In this document: piece after piece, positions 13,952 to 46,014 of the stretch | Layout: every line of letters starts with the position of its first letter | Position numbering within the stretch: position 1 is the stretch's first letter | DNA from: a virus | Virus record (IMG/VR): IMGVR_UViG_3300044691_000591 | Location: 20,850-84,849 of that record | Strand: one strand, 5' to 3' | DNA: 64,000 bases | Program-made: the position numbers and the translations under genes | The notes under the pieces: model-generated | What the model was told of the DNA's origin: nothing | Database searches by the model: none | What the model saw: the letters and a program-made list of their open reading frames with translations, nothing else

Positions 13952-13954
13952 GGG

Positions 13955-16900
13955 TCAGCCCCCCACTACAGAGCGGTGCAGGAGTTCCTCGTGCGCGAGC
14001 GCATCCAGGACCGACTGCCGGGATGCGACCTCGCGGGTCGTCGCGTGGTACTCCAGGGTTCGCGGACCCCCGTTGGTGACCGTGGTGGCCGAGTGGGCGG
14101 CGCCGGGTGCGGCGGCCGTGCCGGAGACCAGCCCGGCCATCTGCCGGGCCATGCGCGCGGACACATCCGACGGGTACACCTGGGAGGGGCCGCCGGTGCG
14201 GATCAGTTCGGGGCCGCGTTCGCCGACCACTGAGAGGCCGCCGATCTGCGGGAAGCCGCCGTCGGCGTACCAGCCCAGCTGGAGTTCGTGGGCCCAGGCG
14301 TTGGCGGGGCTGCCGTAGCGCGACAGGATGTAGCCCAGTCCCCACTTCTCCTGCGTGGACGGGTTGGTGAGCCAGTCCAGTCCGGCCGTCGCCATCTTGG
14401 AGGGGGGCAGGGCCTGCGGGATGCCGTAGGCGCCCGAGGTGGGGTTGGTGGCCCGGTAGTTCCACCCGGACTCGCGGGTCCACAGCTGCTGCAGGGCGGG
14501 CCACTGGTCCATGCCCCAGCCGAACTGGGGCAGCATGGCCTGCGCCGCGGCCTGGGCGACCACGGGGGCTGCGCCGGTGGCCAGCCCCGGGCCGGACAGC
14601 TGGGCGATGCCGGGGACGCGGCCGATGCTCGTGTAGGCGCCCAGGCCCTCCTCGCGGACCACGGTGCCGGTGTGCGGGGCGTCGAGCATGGTGCCCGGCT
14701 TCACGTACATGCCCACGTGGTGCGCGGGCTGGCCGAAGAACACCAGGTCGCCCGGCTGCGCGGCGGCGGCCGACACGGGATTGGTGAACGACTGCTGCAC
14801 CTGGGAGGTGCGCGGGATCGCGATGTGCGGGCCGTTCTGGTAGGCGTACTGCATCAGCCCGGAGCAGTCGAAGCCGGTCGGGGACTCGCCGCCCCACAGG
14901 TACTGGACGCCCTTGAAGCCCTCGGCGACGTGCAGCGCGGACAGGCCGGCGCCGCCGGCGCTGGTGGCCTCCTTGCCGCGGATGAACGCGATGGCCTTGG
15001 TGATGGTGGTCTCGGGCAGCAGGCGGGCGCTGTCGCCCCAGGAGCCGGGTGCGTTGCCGCCCAGGGCGGCGTCGATGATGGAGCGGACCGGCTTGAAGGC
15101 GGCTTCGGCGAGGTCGGCGATGCCTTGGCGGGCCCAGTCGACGCCCTTGCTGACGACGTGTCCGACGTCCCCGGCCAGGCTGGAGGCGGCGCCCGCGATG
15201 CCGCTGAAGATGCCGCCGCCGTCGAAGCCCTGGAGGCCGAGTGCGTCGCGGATGGCCTGGACGCCTCCGGTGCGGGCGGCGGCGTTCATGGTGTGGACGT
15301 AGTCGGGGCCAACGGCTCGGGTCCATTCGGGGCGCATGATGGCCTCGCCGCCGCTCAGGGCGACGGGGCCGCTGACGGAGGGGACGAGGTGGACGTCGCG
15401 GCCCGGGGTGTAGCCGGGCATGATGCCGCCGCTGGCGAAGCCCTTGGGCAGGGCGACGTTGGGCAGGTTGCCGAGCCCGATCTTTCCGGCGGTGGCGTTC
15501 CAGACGGTGCGGATGCCCTGGTCGTAGACGGTCTGGACCAGGAACTTGATGGGCGCGGAGAAGAGCGCTTTGACGCCGCCCCAGATCAGGCCGATGCCGT
15601 CGCGCAGGAGTTTGAACGCGCCCTGGAAGACGGTCGCGAAGGTGTTGAAGCCGGTCTTGACGGCGCCCCAGGCGGCGGCGGCAACGGTTTTGATGCCGGA
15701 CCAGAGTCCGCCCCAGAGCGTTTCGACGACGCCCACGATGGTCGAGAAGATCGACTCGACGTGGTGCCAGAGGGTGGTGAACCAGCTGACGATGCCGTTG
15801 ACGATGTCGGGGATGATCGAGTGCCCGAGCAGGATGTCGAACAGGTGGGTGAACCAGGTGATGATGCTGGTCACCGCGTTGACGATCATGGTGACGAACC
15901 GGGTGATCCACGTGATCACCTTGACGATGATCGGGATCAGGAAGTTGATCGCCGCCGCCAGCACCTTCACGAGCACCCCGGCGACCGCCGCGACCACGGT
16001 GATCAGCGGGGTGAGCACGACCATCAGCAGGTTCAGCAGCGGGGTGAGCAGCCCGAGCACTGCGGTCATCAGCAGGCCGATCACCGGGACCAGGGGCATG
16101 AGCGCGGGGAGCAGGCGCACGAACGTGCCGACGATCAACGTCAGCACCGGTGCGATGATCTTCAGGGCGGTGCCGATGAGCAGGCCAAAAATGTTGCCGA
16201 TCATCGTCAGCACCGGAGCCAGCGGCGTCAGCACCGCGATCAGCAACTGAGCCAGCAGCGTCACGATGCCGGTGACCAGAGGGATCAACGACATCAGGAT
16301 CGGCAGCAGCGCACGCACAGCCGCAGCGAAGATCGTCGCGAACACCCCGGCAATCGCGGAGACCACCGCCAGCAGCGGCTTCAGCACAGGCATCAGCGCC
16401 GCCAGCATCCCCGCGATCAGCGAACCGACCAGGTTGACCACCGGGATCAGCGTGTTGATCACACTGGTCAGGGGTCCGACCAGGGCCGCGACCAGCTGAA
16501 CGATCACGCTGACCACCGCGGTGACCACCGGCGCCAGGGCCTTCACGATTGCGGTCAGCAGCGCACTGATGGGCGCGAGCAGCGGGGTGAGGGCCGAAAC
16601 CACCTGCACCGCACCCAGCAGCACCGTCTGCAGCACCGGCGCCAATCCCTTGATCAGCGGCAGCAGCGCCCCACCCAGCGCGACAGCCAGCTGCTTCAGC
16701 ACCGGCCCCAGCGCCACAGCGACCGCCGTGACCGCCGGTGCCAGCGCGGCCAGGAGCGGCAGCGCGGCCTGGATGAGCGACCCGAACACCCCGGCGATGC
16801 CCTTGCCCAGCGCCGCGAGCGCGCCGAAGATCTGCTTCAGGGCCGCCTGCACAGCAGGCATCGCCGAGATCTTCGCGATCTCCGCGACCGTCTGGCCCAG

Positions 16901-19045
16901 CACCCCCAGCACCCCGGTGCCGGCCGTCGACGCCGCAGACAGGACGTTCTTGACGACCGTGAGCACACTGCCCACCAGTGTCATCAGCTGCTTGAACAGG
17001 TCGACCGCGACCTTGATGTCCGACCCCAGGGCGCCTCTGGAGAACAGGCCCGTCAGCTTTCCCGCAACCTTGTCCACCAGCGAGCCGACAGCACTGGTCA
17101 GCTTGTTGAACTCGGGCTGCGCGGCCACCGTGATCTGCCCGAACGCGGTGACGACCTGGCCCGGGATCGCCATCAGCGGACGCAGCCCCGTCGCCGCACC
17201 GGCCAGGATCTGCTTCAGCTGCCCCGACTTCTCCAGATTCCCGAACGCGCTCAGGGCGTTTTTGCCCATCAGGTTCAGGTCCCCGGCCACGCCCATCAGG
17301 CCGGTGCGCAGCGTCGGCAGCACCGACCGGGCCAGCGATCCCACCCGGGTGCCGATCCCGGCCAGCAGCGTGTCCTGCACGCCAAGCTGCAGCCCGTGCC
17401 AGGCCGGCGCGAGCGCCACGATCTCGTTGACGAACGCGCGCGCGTTCGGCGACAGCTGCGACATGGCCTTGGACAGCGCCGAGGTCTGCGCGGCGGCCGA
17501 CTGCTGCGCCTGGGCCAGGGCCTCGGTGGCGTCCGCCACGTTCTGCTGGGCGTCGGCGATGCCCTGCTGCGCGTCCGCGACCTTCTGCTGCGCGTTGGCC
17601 AGGTTCTGGCCTGCGTCCGCGACCTTCTGCTGCGCGGCGGCCAGCGCCCCCTGCTTGTCGATGACAGTCTGGTTCGCGGAGGCGACGTTCTGCTGCGCGG
17701 TGGTCATCGCCGTCGTTCCGGCGATGCCCTTCTTGTTCGCCGCCGCCGTGTCGTTGGACAGTTCGGTGACCTGCTGGCGCTGCTCCAGCAACTGCTGCTG
17801 GGCCTGCGCGAACGTCAGCTGGGCCTGCTGGCGCTGGTCGATGGTGGACTTGGGGTTGGCCAGCACCGCGTTCAGGTTGGTCTGCGCGGCGGCGACGTTG
17901 AGGATGTCCTGCTGCTGGGAGAGCTTCGCGTCGGCGAGGCTGTTGTTCATCGACTCCAGCTCGCGCCGGCCCTGCTCGCGCGCGGAGGTCAGGGCCTGCT
18001 GGGCGGCCACTGCGGCCCGCTGCGCGTTCGCGAGGTCCTGCTCGGCGGTCTTCACACCGGTGACGGCCTGCGCCTGCTGGCGCTGCGCGGACGACACGCC
18101 CTGCGTGGCCTGCTGCAGCTGCTGCTGGGCCGTGGTGACCCCGCGGATCGCGGTGGCCACCGCCTTCTGCGCGGACTCGACGGCCTTGGCGGAGCTGGCG
18201 GCCTTGGTGGCGTCCGTGGTCGAGGTCGAGAAGGCGGCCTTGAACGCAGCACCCAGACCGGTCGTGCCGATCTTGATGGCGGCCAGGGCCGAGCCGACCC
18301 CGGCGATGGCCGGGACTGCGAGGGCCGCGGCTGGTGCCATGGCGATCAGGGCCTGCCCCACCGAGGCCAGGGTCGGCACAGAGGTGATCGCAGTGACCTT
18401 GAGGGCGCTGAGGGCCCGGTCCATCAGACTGAGCGCCCGGTCGCTGTTGCCCGAGTCCACGCCGACGCTGATCGAGGTGCGCCGGTCGCGGGCCGCCCGG
18501 TCGATGGCCGCATCCGCGGTCGCTGTGCCGTGCTCGGACACGTCGATGACCACGCTGCGGTTCTGCGCAAGGTTGTTCAGCGCGGTCCGGACCGACACCG
18601 TCGCTGCGTAGTCGAGCTCCGGGACGACCTTGATCGTGACCTTGTTCTTGAGCGCCACCCCCAACTGGTTCTTCAGCCGGGTGACGGACGCCTGGTCGAG
18701 CTCCAGGCCGACCTTCAGCGTCGTGCCCGCGATGGCCCCGACCTGGCTGCGGACCGAGGCAACGGACCCGGTGTCCAGCTGCACCTTGAGCTTGACGGTG
18801 CGGTCCGCGCCCAGCGCGTCCAGGCGCGTCTTCACCGCGGTGTCGCCGGTCAGCGACGTGGAGAACTTGACCTGCCGGTCGCCCGCCAGCAGGTCCAGCT
18901 TGGTCTTGATCGGAGCGGTCGGCGCCAGGTCCAGGCCGACCTTGACGACCGGCGTCAGCCTGCCCAGCTCCAGCTGCAACTGCGGCCCGAAGCTGCCGGT
19001 GTCCGGCATGACCTTGACCGACGTGGAACCAACCGTCGTAGGCAC
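13955..19045 (-). CDS. Tape measure protein with NlpC/P60 and lysozyme-like domains
   Basis: 1696 residues from the GTG at 19045 (GGGAGG five bases upstream). It sets tail length and probably passes into the cell ahead of the DNA. Residues about 290-560 are Gln/Ala-rich coiled coil with repeated VADAQQ units. The middle is long and hydrophobic with periodic Pro. Near the C-terminus an NlpC/P60 domain has GFDCSGL (Cys about 1393) and HHVGMYV (His about 1443). A transglycosylase-like fold follows (WTRESGWNY, catalytic Glu about 1524; then SGAYGIPQ). At roughly 3 bases per angstrom of tail, 5.1 kb implies a long tail. Even longer overlapping frames here are shadows. Confidence 0.93.
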   Translation of the reverse strand: MPTTVGSTSVKVMPDTGSFGPQLQLELGRLTPVVKVGLDLAPTAPIKTKLDLLAGDRQVKFSTSLTGDTAVKTRLDALGADRTVKLKVQLDTGSVASVRSQVGAIAGTTLKVGLELDQASVTRLKNQLGVALKNKVTIKVVPELDYAATVSVRTALNNLAQNRSVVIDVSEHGTATADAAIDRAARDRRTSISVGVDSGNSDRALSLMDRALSALKVTAITSVPTLASVGQALIAMAPAAALAVPAIAGVGSALAAIKIGTTGLGAAFKAAFSTSTTDATKAASSAKAVESAQKAVATAIRGVTTAQQQLQQATQGVSSAQRQQAQAVTGVKTAEQDLANAQRAAVAAQQALTSAREQGRRELESMNNSLADAKLSQQQDILNVAAAQTNLNAVLANPKSTIDQRQQAQLTFAQAQQQLLEQRQQVTELSNDTAAANKKGIAGTTAMTTAQQNVASANQTVIDKQGALAAAQQKVADAGQNLANAQQKVADAQQGIADAQQNVADATEALAQAQQSAAAQTSALSKAMSQLSPNARAFVNEIVALAPAWHGLQLGVQDTLLAGIGTRVGSLARSVLPTLRTGLMGVAGDLNLMGKNALSAFGNLEKSGQLKQILAGAATGLRPLMAIPGQVVTAFGQITVAAQPEFNKLTSAVGSLVDKVAGKLTGLFSRGALGSDIKVAVDLFKQLMTLVGSVLTVVKNVLSAASTAGTGVLGVLGQTVAEIAKISAMPAVQAALKQIFGALAALGKGIAGVFGSLIQAALPLLAALAPAVTAVAVALGPVLKQLAVALGGALLPLIKGLAPVLQTVLLGAVQVVSALTPLLAPISALLTAIVKALAPVVTAVVSVIVQLVAALVGPLTSVINTLIPVVNLVGSLIAGMLAALMPVLKPLLAVVSAIAGVFATIFAAAVRALLPILMSLIPLVTGIVTLLAQLLIAVLTPLAPVLTMIGNIFGLLIGTALKIIAPVLTLIVGTFVRLLPALMPLVPVIGLLMTAVLGLLTPLLNLLMVVLTPLITVVAAVAGVLVKVLAAAINFLIPIIVKVITWITRFVTMIVNAVTSIITWFTHLFDILLGHSIIPDIVNGIVSWFTTLWHHVESIFSTIVGVVETLWGGLWSGIKTVAAAAWGAVKTGFNTFATVFQGAFKLLRDGIGLIWGGVKALFSAPIKFLVQTVYDQGIRTVWNATAGKIGLGNLPNVALPKGFASGGIMPGYTPGRDVHLVPSVSGPVALSGGEAIMRPEWTRAVGPDYVHTMNAAARTGGVQAIRDALGLQGFDGGGIFSGIAGAASSLAGDVGHVVSKGVDWARQGIADLAEAAFKPVRSIIDAALGGNAPGSWGDSARLLPETTITKAIAFIRGKEATSAGGAGLSALHVAEGFKGVQYLWGGESPTGFDCSGLMQYAYQNGPHIAIPRTSQVQQSFTNPVSAAAAQPGDLVFFGQPAHHVGMYVKPGTMLDAPHTGTVVREEGLGAYTSIGRVPGIAQLSGPGLATGAAPVVAQAAAQAMLPQFGWGMDQWPALQQLWTRESGWNYRATNPTSGAYGIPQALPPSKMATAGLDWLTNPSTQEKWGLGYILSRYGSPANAWAHELQLGWYADGGFPQIGGLSVVGERGPELIRTGGPSQVYPSDVSARMARQMAGLVSGTAAAPGAAHSATTVTNGGPRTLEYHATTREVASRQSVLDALAHEELLHRSVVGG

Positions 19046-19063
19046 TGCGACCTCCCTTCCCGA

Positions 19064-19893
19064 TCAGACGGACTGCTGCTCCAGGGCCGCGATCCGGGCC
19101 CGCCACTCCTCCACGCCCACCGGCTCCGCAACCGGGGCACTCGCCGGGCTGAGACTGTCCAGCACCGCCCGCACCCTGGCCGCCTTCGCCGACCTCGCCG
19201 CCGCCACCTCCTCGTCCTCGACCAGATGAGGAGGATCAGCCGCCTTCAGATCCGGCGGCGCGCCCTTGAACTGCCAGCCCGTCCACGCCAGACGGACCAG
19301 CAGAATCAGGGCGTTGTACTGCGCCGCCTGCAGGTAGGTGGCCTGTGACCAGCGACGACCCTCGACGTCGCCGGCCACAGCCGCCTTGGTGGCCGAGTCC
19401 TCAGGGAGGGCGTCGACCAGGTCCCGCAGCTCCGCCCACGACATGGAGCCCTCGCCCCACGACAGCGCCCAGAACTCGTCCAGGCGCCGCCCCGGGTAGT
19501 AGCGCTGAATATCGGCGCGCACATGGCCGGCGTGCTCCTGAAGGAGGCTCAGGAGCCGGAGCCTTCCCCCGCCGTGGTGCCCGCCTCCCCGTCCAACTCG
19601 CCGATGATCTCCTTGAGCTCGCCGACGGTGAGCTTCATCTCCCGCACCAGCACGTCGAACTCCTCGGGCGGGCTGGCGATCTCGCGCAGGATGGCGATGT
19701 TCGCGTCGCCGCCCTTGGCCTGCACCTCCTCGATGAGTTCGATCGGCCACAGGTCCTGTGCCAGAAACGAGCACGTGTGCTCCTTGCCGTCGGCGGTCTC
19801 GAAGTCCAGGTCGAGGTGCGTGACCTTGGCGGCTGCGGTCTGCTGGGCGCGCATCTCGGACAGGCGCATGCGCTTGCGGTTGGGCTTGGACAT
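19064..19893 (-). CDS. Tail assembly chaperone GT, made by -1 frameshift
   Basis: Ribosomes that slip back one base at the GGGGGAA at 19564-19570 leave the upstream frame after its residue 109 (Glu). They continue with RLRLLSLLQEHAGHVRADIQ and run to the TGA at 19064. The downstream part contains QRYYPGRRLDEFWALSWGEG, a pattern typical of the second part of siphophage tail chaperones. It ends near the tape measure start, which it should help fold. The fusion is expected at a lower level than the short product. The exact shift codon is inferred from frame geometry, not shown. Confidence 0.75.
19549..19893 (-). CDS. Tail assembly chaperone G (short product)
   Basis: 114 residues; MSKPNRKRMRLSEMRAQQ, then FLAQDLWPIELIEEVQAKGG. 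Size, acidic helical character and position between the major tail protein and the tape measure gene identify it as the first tail chaperone of lambda G/GT type. It ends with a Gly/Ser/Glu stretch encoded over the slippery site. It keeps the tape measure protein soluble until the tail tube forms. The two-product arrangement is typical of long-tailed phages. Confidence 0.8.
   Translation of the reverse strand: MSKPNRKRMRLSEMRAQQTAAAKVTHLDLDFETADGKEHTCSFLAQDLWPIELIEEVQAKGGDANIAILREIASPPEEFDVLVREMKLTVGELKEIIGELDGEAGTTAGEGSGS
19564..19570 (-). other. Candidate -1 programmed frameshift site
   Basis: The mRNA reads GGGGGAA here. The upstream chaperone frame decodes GGG then GAA, and the downstream frame is the -1 frame, as required. 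It is the only homopolymer-type run in the overlap of the two frames, which ends at the upstream stop at 19549. P-site re-pairing on GGG is perfect, while the A-site pairing is weaker, so another nearby codon cannot be excluded. Confidence 0.6.
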
Positions 19894-32098: not shown

Positions 32099-32731
32099 TC
32101 AGTGCCACGGTGCGGGGCCGGTCCGGGACGCCCAGGCGGCCAGGGCCTGCTCGTCGAACAGGCGCAGCCCGACGCGCCGGCCGAACGCGGCGGCCTGCTC
32201 GGTGAACGTGGACGTCGTCACCACTGCGGCGAGGTCTGCGCCGTGGATCTGCCGGTACGTGCCGTTGACCGCCTGCACCATCGGGGAGCGAACCGGGTTG
32301 CCGACGGCGTAGCGCTTGGCCTGGATCAGGATCCGGCGGCCGTCCGGGGTGGTGGCCAGTACGTCGGCGGCGAGGTCTCCTGCTCCGCCGACGACGGTGA
32401 CGTTGCGGCAGCCGTCGCGGCGGCACAGGTCGGCGAGGGCGTGCTCGAACTGGGTCGGGCTGAGCCGCCGGAAGTCCATGACGGGGCGCCGGCAGTAGGG
32501 CGCGATGGTGCGGCGCTGAGCGCGGTGCATCTTGATGTACACGAAGCCAATGGCGGTGGTGGCTGCGATTGCCGCAACGCAGATCATGATCTGCGGGTGC
32601 CGGGAGAGCCACAGTGCGGCGTCGAACAGGATCAGGGCGGCAATGATCAACATGGGGCCGGTGATCCGCTGGCGCTGTACGCGCCTGCGCAGTTGGGCTT
32701 TCGCCTGGCGCACGCGGAGAGGTGTGGTCAC
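32099..32731 (-). CDS. Membrane-anchored Mrr-type nuclease
   Basis: 210 residues from the GTG at 32731, whose start overlaps the translocase stop (GTGA). Two membrane segments lie at about residues 20-66 (MLIIAALILFDAALWL and MICVAAIAATTAIGFVYI). The rest is a Mrr-type PD-(D/E)xK nuclease: SPTQFEHALADL carries the leading Glu, GDLAADVLA the active Asp and RILIQAKRYA the Q-x-K. All three are present, so it may be active. This type is known from restriction enzymes acting on modified DNA and occurs near plasmid transfer genes. It could cut foreign or modified DNA, or nick at the transfer site; neither is shown. Confidence 0.8.
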   Translation of the reverse strand: MTTPLRVRQAKAQLRRRVQRQRITGPMLIIAALILFDAALWLSRHPQIMICVAAIAATTAIGFVYIKMHRAQRRTIAPYCRRPVMDFRRLSPTQFEHALADLCRRDGCRNVTVVGGAGDLAADVLATTPDGRRILIQAKRYAVGNPVRSPMVQAVNGTYRQIHGADLAAVVTTSTFTEQAAAFGRRVGLRLFDEQALAAWASRTGPAPWH

Positions 32732-34995
32732 GACTGGCTCATCTCGGGGACAGGCAGCCCGTACTCGCCGCTGGCGGCCGGGTTGCGGAGGATGGTGCCG
32801 TCCTTGACCAGGCGGCTGACCGTGTTCTCGACCGTCTTGCGGGCGACACCGGACTGGTCCGTGATGGCGTCCAGGTGCAGGTAACCGACGTCCAGACCGA
32901 TCGGGTCGCGGTACTCGCCCAGGACCGTGAGGATCTTCTCCTGCGCCGTCGGCTCCTTCGCCGCGGCCGGCTTCGCCTGACCGGGCGTCCACTTCGCGGC
33001 GCCGTCCTCATCCTCGTCTTCGGCGGCTGGCCCGACGGGGACCAGCGCGATCTCGCCGCGGTCCTCCCACTCGGGCCAGTCGGCGGGAATGACGATCTGC
33101 TCCGGATCGAACAGGCCGGCGGCGGACTCCAGGATCCACAGGCGCATCATCTCGGCGCGGTCGTCGGGCCCGACGGTGTAGCCGACGCCGAACGTGCGGC
33201 TGGGGTCGTCGTCGGGGACCGTCGGGTCGTAGATCAGAGTGTCGTCCTCGTCGCTCTTCCAGAACGCCGGGATCTTGGCGGGGTCGACGCCCGCGAACGC
33301 GTCGGGCAGGTCGACCCGGTTCCTCTGGTCGCTGTCGGAGCGCAGCAGGATCAGGGCGCCGCCGTAGAACACGTTGTCGCGGATGGAGGTGTCCGAGCCC
33401 ATCTTGTCGAGGTTCAGGATCTGCCCGCACAGGATCAGGATCAGGCCCAGTGAGCGGCCCTGCTCGGCCAGGGCGGCGATGATGAATGCCGCCTCGGCCT
33501 TGTTGGTTGCCTTCTCGCCGAGGAGCTGGGCGAACTCGTCCAGGACCACGGCGGTGTAGGGCATGTCGGCGGTCGGGACGAAGTTCTTCATCCGCAGCCG
33601 CTGCGACTGCTCGACGCGGTGCAGGAGGAGGGCGTAGGCCACGCGCAGGGCGCCCATCGCACCGTCGATACCGCAGCCGGGGTAGGTGGCCATGTCCTCG
33701 ACGTCGGGGTTGCTGGAGCCCTTGGGGTCGGCGTAGATGATCGCGACCCGGTTGACGTGGTAGCTGAGGCACAGGAGCTGCAGCGCCCCGCCCTTCCCGG
33801 AGCCGGTCACCCCGGCGATCAGGACGTGCCGGGCGCCCATCCTGGTGTCGTACAGCTGCACGCGGGCAGGGCGGCCGGAGATGCCGGTACCCAGGTTCAC
33901 GAACCCGTTGGCGTTGGCGAGCAGCGTCTCGGGGCCAGGCAGGGGCTGGCCGGCTTCCAGGGGTGAGCGGTCCATGAGCCGGAGCTTGGCCCGGCGGGGG
34001 TTGTTCGTGGGTTCGACGGACGTCAGCAGGGTGGTGGTGCGAAGTGCTCCGGCGATGCGGTATGAGTCGGGGGCGGTGACGGCGTCGGTGTCCTCGTCGG
34101 CGACGACCCATGCGGCGATGCCACCGGTTGCAGGGTCGGGGACGATGCCCTCCAGGTGGGTGCCGGGCATGCAGCCGCCCTTGTGGCCCACACGCCGCAG
34201 CCACAGTGCCTCCAGGGCGCTGTACTCGGCCACGTCGACGGTCGGCGCGACCACGTCGACGTGGATGTGGCGAGAGCTGGTGTGCGGACCGTCAATGAGG
34301 TGGACCCGCGCCTCGGGGACGCCGTAGACCCCGGACACGGTCTCGGCGGTGACCGAGACGGGGCGGCCGGGCATCGAGTGGATCGTGCCCTCCCACGCCT
34401 CCGGGCTGTAGCCGGTCAGGGTGAGGTGCTGGCCGGGGTGCGCGCCGTCCTCGCTGGAGATCCAGTCGTGCCAGTACTGCAGGACGTCGCGCTCCGGCGT
34501 CGGCTCTGGGACTGGGGCGGCGGGCGCGCGGTAGGCGGCGACCGCGCGGGGCTTGCGCAGGACGCGGCGCAGCGCGAAGTGGATGTAGCCGGTCGCGGAC
34601 CACCAGGCCACCGACACAAAGCCGGCCACGGAGGGCAGCGTCATCCAGCCGGCGGCCAGGGAGTCGATTCCGGGCCAGCCGTACTGCGTCGCGGTGGCCG
34701 CCGCGGTGGCGGTCGCGATCGCGGAGACCAGGAACGGCTCGCGGTGGGCGCGCACGATGTCACCGCCCGGCAGGGCGTCCAAGTGCTCATCGGACAGCAG
34801 GTGCATGTAGTTCGCGCCGGCGGCCAGGGCGGGTACGGCCAGCAGGCAGCTGACGGTACTCGCGGCCTGACCGTCCAGCAGCGGCAGGGTCAGGGCGGTC
34901 GCCAGCGGGGCGGCGACCTGAGCCACGGCAAACCGCTTCTCGGCGGCAGGGTTCGGCAGCGCCTTGGCCGCGGGCGTGGTGTCGTTGGTGGTCAC
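32728..34995 (-). CDS. TraB/FtsK-type DNA translocase
   Basis: 755 residues from the GTG at 34995 (AGGAG seven bases upstream). Three N-terminal membrane segments lie at about residues 30-60, 88-106 and 115-141. The motor follows with Walker A GVTGSGKGGALQ (near residue 398) and Walker B AVVLDEFAQLL (near 483). A C-terminal winged-helix-like domain (LHLDAITDQSGVARKTVENT) resembles the part of Streptomyces TraB that reads 8-bp repeats. Length and layout match conjugative plasmid TraB rather than cell-division FtsK. It would pump double-stranded DNA through a membrane pore, between hyphae. It is translationally coupled to the Mrr nuclease. Confidence 0.85.
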   Translation of the reverse strand: MTTNDTTPAAKALPNPAAEKRFAVAQVAAPLATALTLPLLDGQAASTVSCLLAVPALAAGANYMHLLSDEHLDALPGGDIVRAHREPFLVSAIATATAAATATQYGWPGIDSLAAGWMTLPSVAGFVSVAWWSATGYIHFALRRVLRKPRAVAAYRAPAAPVPEPTPERDVLQYWHDWISSEDGAHPGQHLTLTGYSPEAWEGTIHSMPGRPVSVTAETVSGVYGVPEARVHLIDGPHTSSRHIHVDVVAPTVDVAEYSALEALWLRRVGHKGGCMPGTHLEGIVPDPATGGIAAWVVADEDTDAVTAPDSYRIAGALRTTTLLTSVEPTNNPRRAKLRLMDRSPLEAGQPLPGPETLLANANGFVNLGTGISGRPARVQLYDTRMGARHVLIAGVTGSGKGGALQLLCLSYHVNRVAIIYADPKGSSNPDVEDMATYPGCGIDGAMGALRVAYALLLHRVEQSQRLRMKNFVPTADMPYTAVVLDEFAQLLGEKATNKAEAAFIIAALAEQGRSLGLILILCGQILNLDKMGSDTSIRDNVFYGGALILLRSDSDQRNRVDLPDAFAGVDPAKIPAFWKSDEDDTLIYDPTVPDDDPSRTFGVGYTVGPDDRAEMMRLWILESAAGLFDPEQIVIPADWPEWEDRGEIALVPVGPAAEDEDEDGAAKWTPGQAKPAAAKEPTAQEKILTVLGEYRDPIGLDVGYLHLDAITDQSGVARKTVENTVSRLVKDGTILRNPAASGEYGLPVPEMSQS

Positions 34996-34999
34996 AGTC

Positions 35000-35368
35000 C
35001 TACTCCTGCCGGTACCAGGTGCGGTTGGCCATCTCGACGGGGGAGCGGTCGCGGGCTTCCTTGATGCCGCCGTGGGTGGTGACGGTCGCCTGCTCGGCGG
35101 CGACCGCCGCGCGGGATGCCTCGTCGGCGGCGTTGGCGTAGGCGAGCGCGGCCGTGGACACGCCCTGCATGATTCGCGAGACCTCGCGGGTCTCGGCAAC
35201 GGTCGCCGGATCGACCTTGAGGGCGGCGGTCTGCTCGGCGATGCGCCCGGTGTCCTTGGCCTGGGCGTCCATCGCGGAGGCCATCTTCTTGTGCCTCTGG
35301 GTGGCGCGCCGCACGTCCCGGGCCAGGGCCCGCGTCTCGCGCAGCAGTTCGCCATAGGTCAGTGCCAC
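35000..35368 (-). CDS. Coiled-coil protein with C-terminal HGGI motif
   Basis: 122 residues, GTG start. Nearly all helix and Ala/Arg/Glu-rich coiled coil (RETRALARDVRRATQRHKKM, ADEASRAAVAAEQATV). It ends in THGGIKEARDRSPVEMANRT followed by WYRQE. The adjacent 555-residue protein ends with the same kind of sequence. It is placed between that gene and the translocase, so a scaffold or adaptor for the transfer complex is likely. I know no named family. Confidence 0.7.
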   Translation of the reverse strand: MALTYGELLRETRALARDVRRATQRHKKMASAMDAQAKDTGRIAEQTAALKVDPATVAETREVSRIMQGVSTAALAYANAADEASRAAVAAEQATVTTHGGIKEARDRSPVEMANRTWYRQE

Positions 35369-37171: not shown

Positions 37172-37741
37172 CTAACGGCTGCGTGCGGTCAGCAACTTCT
37201 TCGCCTTGCCGCCGACCAGCACGACACCGATCGACCCCAGGACGATCAGCCCGACGTTCGAGCCGGTCCCCGCCCCACCGCCGGTGCTGCTGGTGCTCGA
37301 CGCGTCGGCCAGGGCGGGCGAACCGGTCGCCGGGTAGATCGAGCCGCAGTCCGACACCCCGCCGAAGTTGTTGCCGGCCTTCGCGATGCACGCCTCCACC
37401 GCGAGACGACGAGCCCGCTGAGCAGGGGTTTCCTGCGCAGCGGCCTTCGCCTGGGCGGCGGCCTGCTGCTCCTGGGCCAGCTGCACCCTCGCCGCATCCA
37501 CGGCGACCTGGCCGGCGCGGATATGCGCGTTGGCCTGGTTGGCCTCGTACTGCGACCACGTGAACATGCCAGTGGCCGCCACGGCCGCGAAGCCAAGACC
37601 GAGACCGGCCTTGGCGCGAGGGCTGAGCTTGGCCGGCGGCGGGGGCTCCGTCGGCTTCGGCGTCTGGTAGGGCTGATAGGGCATCGAGCTGATGTTGTAG
37701 CCGGGATCGTTGTAGGGGGACTGGTAGCGGTACTCGGTCAT
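37172..37741 (-). CDS. Spd-like membrane protein with two membrane segments
   Basis: 189 residues from the ATG at 37741, which overlaps the DUF2637 stop (ATGA). A Tyr/Pro/Gln-rich N-terminus (RYQSPYNDPGYNISSMPYQP) precedes a segment at about residues 46-63 (GLGLGFAAVAATGMFTW). A coiled coil with Ala/Gln follows, then two Cys and a second segment near the end (NVGLIVLGSIGVVLVGG). This topology resembles small membrane proteins in Streptomyces plasmid transfer operons, thought to let DNA cross septa. Assigned by topology and context only. Confidence 0.65.
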   Translation of the reverse strand: MTEYRYQSPYNDPGYNISSMPYQPYQTPKPTEPPPPAKLSPRAKAGLGLGFAAVAATGMFTWSQYEANQANAHIRAGQVAVDAARVQLAQEQQAAAQAKAAAQETPAQRARRLAVEACIAKAGNNFGGVSDCGSIYPATGSPALADASSTSSTGGGAGTGSNVGLIVLGSIGVVLVGGKAKKLLTARSR

Positions 37742-38637
37742 TGCTCTTCTCCATTCAGGGCTGGGACATCTGCGCGGTCGAGGATCTCCGCGCGGATCGT
37801 CTTCGCGACGGTGTCCGAAGGCAGCCCGTGGCCGGCTCGGTCGATCGCTTGGGCGAACTCGTTGGCGGTCGGCTGGCGCCGGAGGCGTTGGAACTCGGCG
37901 TGGAAAATCGGCTTGGCGATCTCCACCCACTCGTCGAGTGGGCGACGGGGCGGTCGCTTCCCGGCGGCGGAACGGGGCGCCTTCGGTCGACGAGTCGTCG
38001 GCGGCTTGGCCGGCTTCTCGTCGACGGAAGGTGCGTCGGAACGGTCGACGGAAGCCGTCGGGTCGTCGACGGTTCGGGCCGGTTCCGACGCGACGGGAAG
38101 CGTCGGTTCGACGCCGCTCCCGTCGACGGGAGCCCGTGTTCCGTCGGTCGTTCCGTCGTCGGCAGCGGACTGATCCGTCGCAGCATCCGTCAATGACTCG
38201 GTCGGCTCCCGTCGCGGGGTGAGGAACTTCTTGATCTGTCCCATGAGGACTGCGAATGACAAAAGCGCGCCGCAAGGTGGGACCGCTGCGACGACGTAGG
38301 TCATGGGCGCGGCGCCTGCTCCGACGCCGGCAACGTTGAGGGCAACGGAGCCGACGGAGCCGATCAGAGTCAGGCAGATGGCCCACCCGTCAGTCCGGCG
38401 GAGCAGGTTGGCGACGAGGACCATCACCTCGCCGAGGACGATGAAGGTGTCGACGGTGCCGGGCCACGCCCAGGCGCGAGCTGCTCTGAGGCCGTGGCCG
38501 CTGGCAACGTCGTGGAGGTGCTCGTAGGAGAGCCAGAACGCTGCGGCGGTCAGGGCGATGGAGAGGATGACCGCGAGCAGCATGAGGCGCCGGATAGTCT
38601 CCGGCGAAGCGACGGGACTGTCGTCGGTCTCGGTCAT
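37738..38637 (-). CDS. DUF2637 membrane protein, spread-associated type
   Basis: 299 residues from the ATG at 38637. The N-terminal half has the DUF2637 pattern: FWLSYEHLHDVASGHGLRAA, then AWPGTVDTFIVLGEVMVLVA and four hydrophobic segments to about residue 130. This family is common beside TraB-like genes in Streptomyces plasmids and integrative elements. A Asp/Ser/Pro/Thr-rich linker (about 150-225) follows. A C-terminal winged-helix-like part with RRPLDEWVEIAKPIFHAEF resembles DNA-binding regions of plasmid proteins. It overlaps its downstream neighbour by 4 bases. Confidence 0.8.
   Translation of the reverse strand: MTETDDSPVASPETIRRLMLLAVILSIALTAAAFWLSYEHLHDVASGHGLRAARAWAWPGTVDTFIVLGEVMVLVANLLRRTDGWAICLTLIGSVGSVALNVAGVGAGAAPMTYVVAAVPPCGALLSFAVLMGQIKKFLTPRREPTESLTDAATDQSAADDGTTDGTRAPVDGSGVEPTLPVASEPARTVDDPTASVDRSDAPSVDEKPAKPPTTRRPKAPRSAAGKRPPRRPLDEWVEIAKPIFHAEFQRLRRQPTANEFAQAIDRAGHGLPSDTVAKTIRAEILDRADVPALNGEEQ
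37986..38129. repeat. GTCGACGG octamer cluster in the DUF2637 gene
   Basis: Exact GTCGACGG occurs at 38020-38027, 38044-38051, 38065-38072 and 38122-38129, with GTCGACGA at 37986-37993. On the coding strand each is a Val-Asp pair in the same GTC GAC codons within the disordered linker. TraB proteins read short direct octamers, so this could be a recognition array, but the coding bias alone may explain it. Confidence 0.4.
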
Positions 38638-38639
38638 GG

Positions 38640-39530
38640 TCAGCTCCCCTGCTTGGCGGCGGTGAGCGCCTGCTCGTTGTGCCCCCGGATGAAGTCGGCC
38701 AGGGGTCCGGTGTTCTCGAACCACTCGGTGCTGCCGACGCGCTGGTCGGCGAAGCGCTTGTGCATGGCCTGCTCCATGCGGCGGTCACCGGCAATGAGCA
38801 GGACGATGTCGCTGGTGCGCAGCGAGAGGGCGCTCACCCGGGCGCGGAGGCTGCTGGTCGTGCCGATCTTGACGCGGCTGCCGTTGCCGATGAAGTAAAC
38901 GTGGGCCTTGTGCTTGCCCTCCGGGACCGGCCAGTTGAAGCGCGGCTCTGCCGGCTTGGCAGCCATGGGCGCGGTCGCCGGCGCGTCGAGGTTGAGGTGG
39001 GCGAGCGCAGCCAGCCGCCTTTCCAGCCGAGCCTTCTGCCTCTTCGCTTCGAGCGCTACGCCGCGCTGCTTGTTCCGCTCGATCAGGAGGTGGTCGATCT
39101 CGGACTGATCGTCCGGGTGCAGGGACTGGGTCTTCATCCAGGCGCGCCACAGCCACGTCACGGGGATGGCGAGCATCGAGATCACCGCGCCGTCCCAGGG
39201 TCCAGTGCGAGGCCAGCCCGTCCAGGTGATCAGCGAGAGGATGATCACCTGGAGCAGCAGACCGCCGCGGCGGCCGAGAAAGGCGCCCTCGGAGTCGTAG
39301 CGGTTGTCCCACTCGACCCAGGCGCACCAGAGCCAGAGCAGGCCAAAGATGCCGCCGGCGAGATACATCTGGACTTGGTCCTGCCACGTCTTGGCCCATG
39401 GAGCGAGCAGGGACCCAAGGAGCCCCGCCTCGCAGGTGGCAGTCACGAACATCAGGACGGCGGTGATCCATCCGGTGACTGCTGCCTCGTGGTCGCGGGA
39501 CTCCTTGGTGGGCTGCTCGATCGTGCTCAC
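38640..39530 (-). CDS. Membrane protein with C-terminal GIY-YIG-like (T5orf172) domain
   Basis: 296 residues from a GTG at 39530 (AGGAG nine bases upstream). Four hydrophobic segments lie between about residues 20 and 130 (GWITAVLMFVTATCEAGLLG; YLAGGIFGLLWLWCAWVEW; LLLQVIILSLITWTGW; AVISMLAIPVTWLW). A basic coiled coil (KQRGVALEAKRQKARLERR) follows. The last 90 residues, AHVYFIGNGSRVKIGTTSSL, RARVSALSLRTSDI, MEQAMHKRFADQRVGSTEWF, fit the T5orf172/MUG113 GIY-YIG nuclease group with Tyr, Lys-Ile-Gly and Arg. It could nick DNA at the membrane, perhaps with the translocase. Activity is unproven. Confidence 0.75.
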   Translation of the reverse strand: MSTIEQPTKESRDHEAAVTGWITAVLMFVTATCEAGLLGSLLAPWAKTWQDQVQMYLAGGIFGLLWLWCAWVEWDNRYDSEGAFLGRRGGLLLQVIILSLITWTGWPRTGPWDGAVISMLAIPVTWLWRAWMKTQSLHPDDQSEIDHLLIERNKQRGVALEAKRQKARLERRLAALAHLNLDAPATAPMAAKPAEPRFNWPVPEGKHKAHVYFIGNGSRVKIGTTSSLRARVSALSLRTSDIVLLIAGDRRMEQAMHKRFADQRVGSTEWFENTGPLADFIRGHNEQALTAAKQGS

Positions 39531-42826: not shown

Positions 42827-43378
42827 CTAGCGGGGCGGGTCGTCGTCGGTGGCGGGCCCGATGTGCGTGGGTGGGGTCACGCCGGCCTGGCGGTAGGCCT
42901 CGCTGAGCGCGGGGGAGAGGCGGATCTCGCCCGATAGCGTACTGCGGAAGTGTCGGCGGCCGGGCGGCTTGGCGCGGGACTCGAAGGCGTTCCAGTACTC
43001 GCCGTCGTCGTCGGGCGGCACGTGCAGTGGCCGGTTGCCCTCGGCCCAGTCCCAGACGCGCTCGGCCTCGTTCATGTAGTCCGAGATCAGCACGATGCGC
43101 CCCTCGGCCGTCGGCGGTAGGAGCAGGGCGGACGGCGGGACGTCGAAGACCACGGCGAGGGCCATGAGGTCGTCCGTGTCGACGCGGCGGGTGCCGCCCT
43201 CGATCTTGCTGATTGCTGAGGCGGCGATCGGGCGGCCCAGTTCGGCCAGCTCCTCGGAGAGCTTGTAGGTCGACATGCCCAGGGCGTTGCGGATGCGGGC
43301 GACGTTCACGGCCACGACCTGCCCGGTTGGGCCCAGCTCGTTGGCTCGCCGCCTTGTCACGCTCTCATCTGCCGCCAT
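42827..43378 (-). CDS. XRE-family repressor
   Basis: 183 residues. The N-terminal Cro/C1-type domain is at residues 20-75: VARIRNALGMSTYKLSEELA, then AASAISKIEGGTRRVDTDDL. The C-terminal half has no peptidase signature, so it is not of LexA/CI autocleaving type and may sense a partner or ligand. It is divergent from the excisionase-like gene and the replication genes, the usual place for an immunity repressor. The TGCAACCA motif at 43407-43414 lies directly in its promoter gap. Confidence 0.8.
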   Translation of the reverse strand: MAADESVTRRRANELGPTGQVVAVNVARIRNALGMSTYKLSEELAELGRPIAASAISKIEGGTRRVDTDDLMALAVVFDVPPSALLLPPTAEGRIVLISDYMNEAERVWDWAEGNRPLHVPPDDDGEYWNAFESRAKPPGRRHFRSTLSGEIRLSPALSEAYRQAGVTPPTHIGPATDDDPPR

Positions 43379-43481
43379 GCGGGCAGCCTCTCACGCGATC
43401 TACCCCTGCAACCAACGACACGGGGCGAGTTCGCCGTATATACTTCTAACATCGCAGCACGCGAGTGACTGAAGGAAGCAA
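43379..43481. promoter_or_regulatory. Divergent promoter/operator region of the switch
   Basis: TGCAACCA at 43407-43414 repeats the core found at 41532-41539 and 41566-41573. TATACT at 43439-43444 within the AT-rich GTATATACTTCTAAC is a good -10 for the rightward gene. The reverse strand of the same run gives TATATA for the repressor direction. GGAAG at 43474-43478 is the rightward ribosome site. Overlap of both promoters with one operator would make a simple switch. Confidence 0.55.
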
Positions 43482-43709
43482 ATGCCTACGGAAGCAACGC
43501 GCCTGGTCGGAGACCCGGAAGACCTGCTCACCGCGCAGGAGGTCTCCGCGATCACCCGACTCAGGCCCCAGACCCTCGCCGACCACCGCTACAAGAAGGT
43601 CGGCATCCCCTACATCAAGCTCGGCACCAACCCGCGCGCGCCGGTCCGCTACCGCCGCCGGGACGTCGACGCCTACATGACCGACCCGCTCGCCGAGGCC
43701 AACGGCTAG
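43482..43709 (+). CDS. Excisionase-like winged-helix protein, second
   Basis: 75 residues. LLTAQEVSAITRLRPQTLAD is a MerR/Xis-type helix-turn-helix, and VRYRRRDVDAYMTDP the wing plus final helix. It is first in the rightward replication unit and divergent from the XRE repressor. It could be a Cro-like antagonist, an excisionase or a replication regulator. No integrase is present in the window to pair with. Confidence 0.75.
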   Translation: MPTEATRLVGDPEDLLTAQEVSAITRLRPQTLADHRYKKVGIPYIKLGTNPRAPVRYRRRDVDAYMTDPLAEANG

Positions 43710-43756: not shown

Positions 43757-44647
43757 GTGAGCCTTGAAGCGATGGACTGGGTGTGGAATCACTCCCGCTC
43801 CAAAGGTGTCGGCCGCATGGTGATGCTGGCCCTCGCCGACAAGGCGCTGCCCGCGACGGCGGACTGCCGGGCCTACGGCTCCTACCGCTTCCTGGCACAG
43901 CGGGCGAACTGCACCCAAGGGGCGATCACTGAGGCGCTCGACGGACTGTATTCGCTGGGCGAGTTGGAATTGCTGCCGGAGAAGGGGCCGATGGGCGCGG
44001 CGACGTACCGGCTGCCGAAAGCGGTTGGCCATACCCGTCCCGTGCGCGGCAATCGCTCGGCTCACCCGAGCGATTCAGACGCGAAGGCTCGAAAGGAATC
44101 GCTCGGCTCAGCCGAGCAGCAGGTGCACGGCTCAGCCGTGCGATCTGAAGCCGAATCGCTCGGCTCAGCCGACCACAACACCACCACCCCACCAAAGACC
44201 ACCACCTCCGCGCCTACCGACCCGCCTGCCTCTGGTGACACCAAGGGAGGAGGTGGAGGAGACCAGCAACAGGAAGCCGAGGCCTTCCTCCAGTCGCTGC
44301 CTTCACCTTGGACGGCAGGACGGAAGACCGCCCGCGAGCTCGCCCCGCTGCTCCTGGAACGGACAGGCGAACAGGGCTGGCAACTGGACGCCGACCTCGC
44401 CGCGCAGCTGAGCAAGAACGCCACCGGCGTCAACCACCCCGCCTCCGTCCTGCGGGCCCGCATCGACGACCTCCCGAAGAAGCCCACCGCCAAAACCCGG
44501 GCCTCGCCATCACTCCCGCCTTGGTGCGGCCAGTGCGGCGACAAGGACCCGGCCGCCGAGACCGACGCCGCCCGGCGCTTCCACCACCTCAACGACGGCA
44601 GCAGCCAACGCTGCCACTGCCACCCCGCACACCAGAAAGCAGCCTGA
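43757..44647 (+). CDS. Replication initiator with internal iterons
   Basis: 296 residues from the GTG at 43757. Residues about 5-90 form a winged helix-turn-helix of the phage replication type (DWVWNHSRSKGVGRMVMLAL, YRFLAQRANCTQGAITEALD). Residues about 95-175 are a low-complexity linker whose codons contain the palindromic iterons. The C-terminal part has helices and a Cys/His finish (WCGQCGDKDP and RCHCHPAHQ) that may bind zinc. It directly precedes and overlaps a DnaB-type helicase, as O precedes P in lambda. It should bind the internal iterons and load the helicase. It has no endonuclease motif, so theta replication is likely. Confidence 0.8.
   Translation: MSLEAMDWVWNHSRSKGVGRMVMLALADKALPATADCRAYGSYRFLAQRANCTQGAITEALDGLYSLGELELLPEKGPMGAATYRLPKAVGHTRPVRGNRSAHPSDSDAKARKESLGSAEQQVHGSAVRSEAESLGSADHNTTTPPKTTTSAPTDPPASGDTKGGGGGDQQQEAEAFLQSLPSPWTAGRKTARELAPLLLERTGEQGWQLDADLAAQLSKNATGVNHPASVLRARIDDLPKKPTAKTRASPSLPPWCGQCGDKDPAAETDAARRFHHLNDGSSQRCHCHPAHQKAA
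44051..44173. repeat. Palindromic iterons, candidate replication origin
   Basis: Four related palindromes lie in the initiator gene. AATCGCTCGG and CCGAGCGATT flank CTCAC at 44051-44075. GCTCGGCTCAGCCGAGC at 44101-44117 is perfect. GCACGGCTCAGCCGTGC is at 44125-44141. AATCGCTCGGCTCAGCCGAC is at 44154-44173. Centres lie 46, 24 and 33 bases apart. A strand-biased C/A-rich tract follows at 44174-44214. They encode the linker words RSAHPSD, ESLGSAE, HGSAV and ESLGSAD. Confidence 0.75.
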
Positions 44648-46014
44648 TGAACCGCGACGAAGCACCGCCCTACCCGGACGAACAGGAGCAGCAGCGCGGC
44701 GACCGAGTCCCCCCGTGCAACCTCCACGCCGAGCAGTGCGTGATCGGCGGCATGCTCCTCTCGAAGGAAGCCATCACCGAAGCCACCGAGATCATCGGCC
44801 CCGGCGACTACTACCGGCCCGCCCACGAGTTCATCCACCGCGCCGTCCTCGACGTGTACGGGCGCGGCGAACCGGCCGACAAGGTCACCGTCGCCGCCGA
44901 GCTGGAGAAGACCGGCCGCACCCGGGAAGCCGGCGGCCCGGACTACCTGAACCTGTGCCTGTCCGTCACCCCGTCAGCGGCGAATGCGGGCTGGTACGCG
45001 GAGGAGGTGCTGCGCACCGCGATCCTGCGCCGCATCATCGGCGCGGGCACGGAACTGATCGGGATCGGGTTCCAGCCCGGCGCGGGGACGGCGAACGAGG
45101 CCCTGGACCGTGCCGCCGCAACACTGCAGTCGCTCACGGCCACAGTGGGCATGTCGATGACCAGCCGCGAGAAGCCGCTCCGCGACGTCCTCGCCGCGAC
45201 GATGGACAACTACGACTCCGACGACGGCAACTACCTCCCGCTGCCCTACAAGGACCTGCGCATCAGGGTCCCGATGGAGCCCGGCGACTTCGCGGTCGTA
45301 GCCGCCACCCCCGGGACGGGCAAGACGACGATCCTCACCGACATGGCCCGCTGCCTGTCGATCAAGCACAACCGCAGGTCGTTCTTCGGCAGCATGGAGA
45401 TGCCTCACACCCAGATTGGCCAGCGCATCCTGTGCGCCGAAGCGCGCGTCGACCTGAACCGCTTTCGCACCCGGGCCCTCACCGAGGAAGACCGGCAGCG
45501 GGTCGACCAGACGCAGAAGCGGATCGAGAACTATCCGCTGGTGATCGACGACTCCACCGCCGTGCCGGTGTCGCGCATGCGTACCCGCCTGCGCCAGCTC
45601 CAGGCTGCAGGCGAACTGCCGGAGCTGTACATCGTGGACTACCTGCAGATCGCCAAGGCGGAGGCTGAGTCGAACGCGAACCGCACCATCCAGGTCGACC
45701 ACATCGCCCGCAGCCTGCGGAACCTGGCCATGGACTTCGGGATCGTCGTGGTGGCCGCAGCGCAGCTGAACCGGCAGACGACGTCGCGGGCCGACCGGGT
45801 GCCGCAACTGTCGGACCTCCGCGAATCCGGCGGCATCGAGCAGGCGTGCACGATCGCCCTGCTGCTGGACCGGCCGGAGGTCTACGAGAAGGAGACTCCG
45901 CGCGCGGGGGAGATGGACATTCACGTCGCCAAGAACCGCATGGGCAGCACGGGCCGGCTGACCGTGGCCTACCAGGGCCACTACTGCCGCGCCGTCGACA
46001 TGGCTGCGGACTGA
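44647..46014 (+). CDS. DnaB-type replicative helicase
   Basis: 455 residues. The N-terminal DnaB domain (residues 25-130) has LHAEQCVIGGMLLSKEAITE. The helicase core has ATPGTGKTTIL (Walker A, near residue 222) and LYIVDYLQIAKAE (Walker B, near 330), then VVVAAAQLNRQTTSR and DLRESGGIEQACTIALLLDR, all family marks. It would form a ring that unwinds DNA at the iteron origin just upstream. The start overlaps the initiator stop. Length is normal for phage DnaB proteins. The host loader or an initiator-borne loader is needed; none is obvious here. Confidence 0.92.
   Translation: MNRDEAPPYPDEQEQQRGDRVPPCNLHAEQCVIGGMLLSKEAITEATEIIGPGDYYRPAHEFIHRAVLDVYGRGEPADKVTVAAELEKTGRTREAGGPDYLNLCLSVTPSAANAGWYAEEVLRTAILRRIIGAGTELIGIGFQPGAGTANEALDRAAATLQSLTATVGMSMTSREKPLRDVLAATMDNYDSDDGNYLPLPYKDLRIRVPMEPGDFAVVAATPGTGKTTILTDMARCLSIKHNRRSFFGSMEMPHTQIGQRILCAEARVDLNRFRTRALTEEDRQRVDQTQKRIENYPLVIDDSTAVPVSRMRTRLRQLQAAGELPELYIVDYLQIAKAEAESNANRTIQVDHIARSLRNLAMDFGIVVVAAAQLNRQTTSRADRVPQLSDLRESGGIEQACTIALLLDRPEVYEKETPRAGEMDIHVAKNRMGSTGRLTVAYQGHYCRAVDMAAD

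What the first reader, a model, noticed from the sequence alone, without database searches (positions are those of the whole stretch)
44051..44173. Lambda-like origin: palindromic iterons inside the initiator gene, next to DnaB
Four related palindromes of GCTCGGCTCAGCCGAGC type lie in the disordered linker of the initiator gene, and the next gene is a DnaB helicase. This is the lambda O/P arrangement rebuilt with unrelated sequence. The palindromes encode recurring words such as ESLGSA in the linker, so protein and DNA constraints overlap.
Basis: partly seen in the sequence, partly recalled or inferred. Interest (0 to 1): 0.8.

Follow-up and report, generated by a model that had tools for sequence, protein, structure and literature searches.

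The report
Phage replication origin inside initiator gene
A Streptomyces-type (pro)phage carries its DNA replication start site as four palindromes inside the gene for the protein that most likely binds them, next to a helicase gene; the arrangement is known from phages lambda and P22 and from Streptomyces linear plasmids, so this is a well-supported new example rather than a new kind.

Summary
Four 17-bp palindromes (44055, 44101, 44125, 44158) lie in the disordered linker of a 296-aa initiator gene, directly before a DnaB gene, and nowhere else in the 84.8-kb record. They are very probably the phage's origin. In 48 of 70 non-redundant relatives, 3-6 palindromes sit at the same place. Their sequence is uniform within a gene but differs between lineages, and it changes together with the predicted recognition helix. 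They occur in different reading frames and beat codon-shuffled controls. In 38 of these 48 genes the least stable 50 bp lies at the end of the array, like an unwinding element; in the window gene it starts 52 bp further on. 'Lambda O/P rebuilt with unrelated sequence' needs three corrections. The initiator matches O-like phage families. A DnaB partner is the P22-type arrangement, not lambda O/P. The C-terminal domain plus adjacent DnaB is shared with Streptomyces plasmids including SLP2, whose rep genes carry their own internal repeats under an unrelated N-terminal domain; a rep1/iteron plus helicase replicon is already reported there. Verdict: real, a new member of a known kind. The new part is a natural initiator-iteron recognition code and module swapping. 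No binding or replication was tested.

The parts
43757..44647 (+). Replication initiator gene (296 aa, GTG start), O-like / HTH family, no Pfam match
   Evidence: PHROG 6643 (E 5e-19), 391 (6e-9), 8540 (2e-8): replication initiation; no Pfam hit
43757..44047 (+). N-terminal winged-helix DNA-binding domain (residues 1-97)
   Evidence: AlphaFold2 pLDDT 88-98 for nearly all of residues 1-90; order H3-12, H18-28, E38-41, H43-50, H54-67, E71-76, E82-85; Foldseek top match is the N-terminal domain of a DNA-binding protein (4pql_B), with Rep-DNA complex 5kbj second
43916..43957 (+). Predicted recognition helix (residues 54-67); residues 53, 55 and 58 rank 4, 6 and 1 of 78 columns for association with the half-site
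   Evidence: ranking is not corrected for phylogeny
44055..44071 (.). Iteron 1, GCTCGGCTCACCCGAGC (25-bp extended palindrome 44051-44075), reading frame differs from the other three
44101..44117 (.). Iteron 2, GCTCGGCTCAGCCGAGC, perfect
44125..44141 (.). Iteron 3, GCACGGCTCAGCCGTGC, perfect palindrome with variant arms
44158..44174 (.). Iteron 4, GCTCGGCTCAGCCGACC
44175..44290 (+). Putative DNA unwinding element: AC-rich then purine-rich, T-poor coding strand; least stable 50-mer of the gene is 44226-44275
   Evidence: stability profile; in 38 of 48 relatives the least stable 50-mer lies at -15 to +60 of the last iteron end, family mean z 2.6 against codon shuffles, window z 1.5; identical codons at 88% of identical residues in residues 140-172 versus 62% in the N-terminal domain, window vs L007
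44048..44251 (+). Disordered linker (about residues 98-165) encoded by the iterons and part of the putative unwinding element
   Evidence: pLDDT below 50 at 115-144 and 159-165
44258..44476 (+). C-terminal domain (about residues 168-240) shared with initiator-like proteins of Streptomyces/Kitasatospora/Frankia plasmids
   Evidence: tblastn 45-52% identity for the best of 46 plasmid records; alignment and profile with L187-L189
44647..46014 (+). DnaB-family replicative helicase, start codon overlaps the initiator stop
   Evidence: PF00772 and PF03796; phrog_19 E 6e-89
43482..43709 (+). Small HTH_17 / excisionase-like gene upstream; a gene in the same place in L007
   Evidence: PF12728 E 5e-6; L007 order
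42827..43378 (-). Divergent Cro/CI-like HTH regulator; boundary of the rightward operon
   Evidence: PF01381 E 4e-6; same order in L007

Best explanation
The array 44051-44174 plus the less stable DNA just downstream (to about 44290) is the phage's theta-type replication origin, embedded in the gene of its own initiator. Dimers of the initiator's winged-helix domain bind the four palindromic iterons. The nucleoprotein complex opens the adjoining T-poor, relatively unstable segment. The C-terminal domain, alone or with host factors, then brings in the DnaB-family helicase encoded by the next gene. Because binding domain and iterons are one piece of DNA, they change specificity together and move together. 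Shown by computation: the palindromes, their conservation of place, their uniformity within a gene and divergence between genes, co-change with the recognition helix, the stability minimum in most relatives, the DnaB neighbour, and the C-terminal domain shared with plasmid proteins. Inferred: dimer binding, strand opening, helicase recruitment, and that this is the only origin.
For: (1) Iteron arrays in the same linker position in 48 of 70 non-redundant relatives, with 0-4 of 200 codon shuffles reaching the observed count in these. (2) Iterons uniform within a locus but different between loci (GCTCGG, GGTCGG, GGTCCG, GGGCCG, GGTACG, GGGTCA, GCCCCG), with at least 8 switches on a tree built without the recognition helix. 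(3) 17 of 18 GGTCCG loci carry A-A-R/K-S at the helix start and none of 21 others does; close relatives L048 (GGTCGG, AHKT) and L058 (GGTCCG, AARS) differ in both; the window (GCTCGG) has CTQGAIT where its three nearest kin (all GGTCGG) have CTREAVT. (4) Same array read in different frames, spacings without a 3-bp period. (5) 38 of 48 genes have their least stable 50-mer at the array end, 46 of 48 are less stable there than codon shuffles by z above 1. (6) In the 8.5-Mb genome of L008 exact iterons occur only in the initiator gene. (7) DnaB neighbour. (8) Lambda has four 18-bp iterons plus a 38-bp AT-rich stretch inside O (PMC3349717).
Against: No binding, footprint or replication data. In the window itself the unwinding element is modest: the least stable 50-mer starts 52 bp after the last iteron, z against codon shuffles is only 1.5, and the segment is about 66% GC. 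Recognition-helix association is confounded by descent except at the few switch points, and L060 breaks the rule. Helical phasing of iterons is weak. About 22 of 70 relatives, mostly distant, showed no clear array with this detector.
Confidence: 0.87

Rival explanations
1. The palindromes are operators: a regulator (the initiator itself or another HTH protein) binds them to control transcription of the initiator-helicase operon, and they are not an origin.
For: 17-bp dyads are typical operators; the divergent regulator and a small HTH gene lie close by.
Against: All four sites are 300-420 bp inside the coding sequence and none lies in the 43379-43481 promoter gap or elsewhere in the record; arrays of 3-6 copies next to a stability minimum are not usual for operators; the half-site tracks the initiator's own recognition helix.
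Confidence: 0.06
2. The palindromes act as RNA hairpins in the mRNA (stability, translation pausing or termination).
For: Each perfect copy can fold into a short GC-rich stem with a small loop (sequence).
Against: Mismatched arm pairs across the family are A.C (30) more often than G.T (19), so wobble pairs are not favoured as RNA pairing would predict; hairpins would not need the same sequence in all copies of a gene, nor co-change with a DNA-recognition helix.
Confidence: 0.03
3. The copies are insertions of a mobile or selfish palindromic repeat that happened to land in a tolerant linker.
For: Repeats in disordered linkers tolerate insertion; copy number varies from 3 to 6.
Against: No dispersed copies in the phage record nor, above the reversed-pattern control, in an 8.5-Mb host genome; position conserved across about 40 divergent genes while the sequence changes in concert.
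Confidence: 0.02
4. The repeats reflect selection on a peptide motif (ESLGSA) in the protein.
For: Two copies of ESLGSA and one HGSA in the linker.
Against: Copy 1 is read in another frame as RSAHPS; relatives read the arrays in two or three frames; codon shuffles that keep the protein lose the palindromes.
Confidence: 0.02

Closest known systems
Streptomyces linear-plasmid origins of the rep1/rep2 type (pSLA2, SCP1, SLP2)
   Same: Initiator-like gene with repeats inside it, directly followed by a DnaB-like helicase; C-terminal domain homologous (45-52% in the best hits); the SLP2 gene has five copies of a 10-mer inside it, 0 of 100 codon shuffles. PMC13152386 states that Streptomyces linear plasmids commonly replicate from a central replicon of a helicase (rep2) and its iteron (rep1). 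From memory, not held here: Chang, Kim and Cohen 1996 reported iterons inside pSLA2 rep1, bound by Rep1.
   Different: N-terminal DNA-binding domain is not alignable with the phage one, and iteron sequences differ; this copy is on a phage record.
Phage P22-type initiator + helicase (gp18/gp12); P22-like phage Emek
   Same: O-like initiator followed at once by a DnaB-like helicase.
   Different: Proteobacterial sequences; the window protein has no Phage_rep_O (PF04492) hit.
Phage lambda O/P and ori-lambda
   Same: Four repeated 18-bp iterons inside O with adjoining low-stability, strand-asymmetric DNA.
   Different: Lambda's next gene P is a helicase loader, not a helicase; direct profile match to O is inconclusive.
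RepA_N plasmid initiators (pSK41) and the chimeric pPR9 Rep
   Same: Winged-helix N-terminal domain binding four Rep boxes placed centrally in the rep gene, dispensable linker, separate C-terminal domain; pPR9 exchanged its binding domain and origin for a PF13730-type one (PMC5703833). Best Foldseek match of the window model is 4pql.
   Different: No RepA_N Pfam match; no adjacent DnaB gene is mentioned in the passages read.
Streptomyces phage SV1 / Picard replication initiation protein
   Same: Homologous N-terminal domain (36-37%), in-gene palindromes GGGCCG-N5-CGGCCC, 5-6 copies.
   Different: Different C-terminal domain, and the next gene is a PHROG 8924 protein of unknown function instead of DnaB.

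Membership tests
PHROG 'replication initiation (O-like)' phage initiators | Significant match to the family profile | tested here: met
   phrog_391 6e-9, phrog_8540 2e-8, phrog_6643 5e-19; 53, 39 and 58 of 58 alignment members
Lambda O/P | Pfam Phage_rep_O (PF04492) initiator | tested here: not met
   no Pfam hit; hhalign to 8 lambdoid O proteins gives 2.5% probability, helix-turn-helix aligned in register, inconclusive
Lambda O/P | Iterons inside the initiator gene with a low-stability stretch beside them | tested here: met
   the low-stability part is strong across relatives, modest in the window
Lambda O/P | Next gene is a P-type helicase loader | tested here: not met
   next gene is DnaB
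P22-type initiator + helicase | O-like initiator directly followed by a DnaB-like helicase | tested here: met
Streptomyces rep1/rep2 plasmid origin (pSLA2/SLP2 type) | C-terminal initiator domain of this plasmid group | tested here: met
   46 plasmid records, best 45-52% identity; alignment and profile search
Streptomyces rep1/rep2 plasmid origin (pSLA2/SLP2 type) | Repeats inside the rep gene and a DnaB-like helicase gene next to it | tested here: met
   window; DnaB-like helicase annotated next in L187-L189, L191, L192, L194-L196; repeats inside L188, L189, L192, L195 and SLP2 at 0 of 100 shuffles
Streptomyces rep1/rep2 plasmid origin (pSLA2/SLP2 type) | Same N-terminal DNA-binding domain | tested here: not met
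   no alignable similarity before the linker; tblastn hits cover only the C-terminal part
RepA_N (pSK41) initiators | Pfam RepA_N domain (PF06970) | tested here: not met
   no Pfam hit
RepA_N (pSK41) initiators | Winged-helix fold of the binding domain | tested here: inconclusive
   4pql, 5kbj and 4pt7 among the best Foldseek matches, but E at best 0.007 and Z about 7.4-7.9, shared with many winged helices
All of the above | Initiator binds the iterons and the segment replicates autonomously | not testable with these tools
   needs protein and plasmids

The most novel reading that the evidence does not exclude
Actinobacterial phages and linear plasmids share one replication chassis (C-terminal domain + DnaB) on which 'binding domain + matching in-gene iterons' cassettes are exchanged as single pieces of DNA, with a readable natural code between recognition-helix residues 52-58 and the iteron half-site, so that origin specificity and incompatibility could be predicted and swapped.
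Probability: 0.45. Interest if true: 0.55.

Novelty: new member of a known kind. Interest (0 to 1): 0.42.

Why it matters
In-gene origins are a known trick, but I found none described for Streptomyces phages in the papers held. This family gives about 48 natural origins in which DNA and binding domain co-vary, enough to work out how such initiators read their sites, to find origins in Streptomyces phages by computation, and to build compatible vector replicons. It also links phage and linear-plasmid replication through a shared C-terminal domain and helicase.

Tried and rejected
First genome-contig scan with the full protein found no relative; the N-terminal alignment found 5. Single-sequence hhalign to lambda O: nothing; to 8 lambdoid O proteins: in register but 2.5% probability. 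The lambda O scan of viral contigs gave only near-identical copies. PDB sequence search: only generic helix-turn-helix hits. Foldseek/VIA: winged-helix matches, none standing out, so the fold does not settle ancestry. Helical phasing: spacings cluster near 22-24, 33-37 and 45-46 bp, but the resultant is only about 0.45 with a broad optimum near 11.4 bp, and 17, 30 and 40 bp also occur; not relied on. Cumulative GC skew has a local peak near 44 kb, but this coincides with the switch to rightward genes, so it is not taken as evidence. RNA-hairpin, operator, mobile-repeat and peptide-repeat readings were considered and rejected as listed. Tyrosine integrase and ParA-type (AAA_31) searches of the record: none. 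Papers on in-gene origins in Streptomyces phages: none found in the held library. The pZL12 paper is not held, and a DOI recalled from memory for Chang, Kim and Cohen 1996 was not found. Several early calls failed for coordinate slips.

Full report
WHAT IS THERE. The window is part of an 84.8-kb IMG/VR virus record with portal, minor tail and tail-fibre genes. A rightward operon starts opposite a Cro/CI-like regulator (42827-43378, minus) and runs: small HTH_17/excisionase-like gene (43482-43709), initiator (43757-44647), DnaB helicase (44647-46014). The same order is present in the nearest relative, L007 (59% identical initiator). Inside the initiator gene lie four palindromes of 17 bp at 44055, 44101, 44125 and 44158, two of them perfect. 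They occur nowhere else in the record within two mismatches.

MORE THAN CHANCE. Window-wide shuffles expect 1.4 consensus matches within three mismatches and 10 are found, 8 of them these four sites read on both strands. Codon-shuffled versions of the gene, which keep the protein and codon use, reach the observed same-sequence iteron count in 0 of 200 cases and four generic palindromes in 12 of 2000. The first copy is read in a different frame from the other three (RSAHPS against SLGSA/HGSA), so the repeated peptide words follow from repeated DNA.

RELATIVES. Two scans with the N-terminal alignment gave 5 genome loci and 77 viral contigs; the named phages SV1 and Picard are homologous. Of 70 non-redundant initiators, 48 carry at least three iterons of one sequence, mostly at nucleotide 280-460 of the gene, just after the DNA-binding domain. 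Within a gene the copies agree; between genes the arms change on both sides together: GCTCGG (window), GGTCGG, GGTCCG, GGGCCG, GGTACG, GGGTCA, GCCCCG. Spacings show no 3-bp period. Mismatched arm pairs are A.C more often than G.T (30 versus 19), so the pairing is not that of an RNA. In the 8.5-Mb genome of L008 the exact iteron is confined to the initiator gene, with only control-level two-mismatch matches elsewhere.

CO-CHANGE WITH THE BINDING DOMAIN. AlphaFold2 gives a confident winged helix for residues 1-97, disorder at 115-144 and a helical C-terminal domain. On a tree built without the recognition-helix columns the half-site changes at least 8 times. 17 of 18 GGTCCG loci have A-A-R/K-S at the helix start and none of the 21 others does. 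The neighbours L048 and L058 differ in both half-site and helix. The window, alone with GCTCGG, has CTQGAIT where L007, L008 and L014 (all GGTCGG) have CTREAVT. L060 is an exception. A simple association ranking puts residues 58, 53 and 55 at ranks 1, 4 and 6 of 78, but this is not corrected for descent.

A SECOND ELEMENT. In 38 of 48 genes the least stable 50-mer of the gene lies at the end of the iteron array (-15 to +60 bp), and the 80 bp after the array are less stable than codon shuffles in 46 of 48 (z above 1; mean z 2.6). These segments are usually T-poor on the coding strand and often hold short repeats such as GAACGCA or GAACCGTCA. In the window the effect is weaker: z 1.5, least stable 50-mer at 44226-44275, 52 bp beyond the last iteron. 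Synonymous codons there are nonetheless unusually conserved against L007 (23 of 26 identical, versus 40 of 64 in the N-terminal domain). Lambda's origin has the same pair of elements inside O, four iterons and a 38-bp AT-rich stretch (PMC3349717) that is strand-asymmetric (PMC5043065).

PARTNERS AND MODULES. The window's C-terminal domain is 45-52% identical, in the best cases, to the C-terminal domains of proteins on 46 Streptomyces, Kitasatospora and Frankia plasmids. In all eight Streptomyces/Kitasatospora plasmids inspected, including SLP2, a DnaB-like helicase gene follows at once; the Frankia record is not annotated at that place. Those plasmid proteins have a different N-terminal domain, and five of the eight genes carry their own repeats inside the gene at 0 of 100 codon shuffles. 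Literature: Streptomyces linear plasmids commonly replicate from a central helicase (rep2) and iteron (rep1) replicon (PMC13152386); from memory, Chang, Kim and Cohen 1996 showed iterons inside pSLA2 rep1 bound by Rep1, a paper not held here. In SV1-type phages a similar N-terminal domain and iterons are combined with another C-terminal domain and a PHROG 8924 gene. pPR9 of Staphylococcus is a known case of an exchanged binding domain plus origin (PMC5703833).

MECHANISM. Most likely the winged-helix domain binds the palindromes as dimers, the complex opens the neighbouring low-stability DNA, and the C-terminal domain hands over to the DnaB encoded next door. The first step rests on the co-change evidence; the second and third are inferred from lambda, P22 and plasmid systems. 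No binding or replication was measured.

VERDICT. The stated parallel is only partly right: the protein belongs to O-like families, the helicase layout is that of P22 and of Streptomyces linear plasmids, and iteron-plus-helicase origins were already known in this genus. It is a new member of a known kind; the most useful part is the natural recognition code and the module exchange.

Noticed in passing
L005:4404-5135 and the genes after the initiator in many relatives (e.g. L043, L060): In SV1-type phages the gene after the initiator is a ~230-aa PHROG 8924 protein of unknown function (zinc-finger-like PF24623 match in SV1), in the place where the window has DnaB; a candidate helicase loader.
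   Followed up: partly
L187-L189, L191, L192, L194-L196 (plasmids): Genes annotated only as hypothetical protein, upstream of DnaB-like helicase genes on Streptomyces/Kitasatospora plasmids, resemble the window's C-terminal domain and several carry in-gene repeats; they look like the plasmids' initiators and origins.
   Followed up: partly
L193:2005-2301 (Frankia plasmid pFQ12): The same C-terminal domain is encoded in a stretch with no annotated gene.
   Followed up: no
32728-35355 (-) and 37738-38724 (-): FtsK/SpoIIIE-like protein (PF01580) and a DUF2637 protein in a record that also has portal and tail genes; mixture of phage-like and conjugative-element-like genes.
   Followed up: partly
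G000:C1:14916-15347 (outside the window): Serine recombinase domain (PF00239, E 1e-19), possibly the integrase; no tyrosine integrase or AAA_31 ParA found in the record.
   Followed up: partly
13575-19106 (-): Open frame of 1843 aa without any PHROG match, overlapping a 1686-aa open frame on the other strand; identity unknown.
   Followed up: no
Downstream of the iterons in L017-L036, L070, L085, L089 and others: Short T-poor repeats (GAACGCA, GAACCGTCA, GGAACCCAAA) follow the iterons in several lineages; possible motifs of the unwinding element.
   Followed up: no
L060: Half-site GGTCCG with a quite different recognition helix (GGGKGVAV), the one clear exception to the helix-iteron correspondence.
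   Followed up: no
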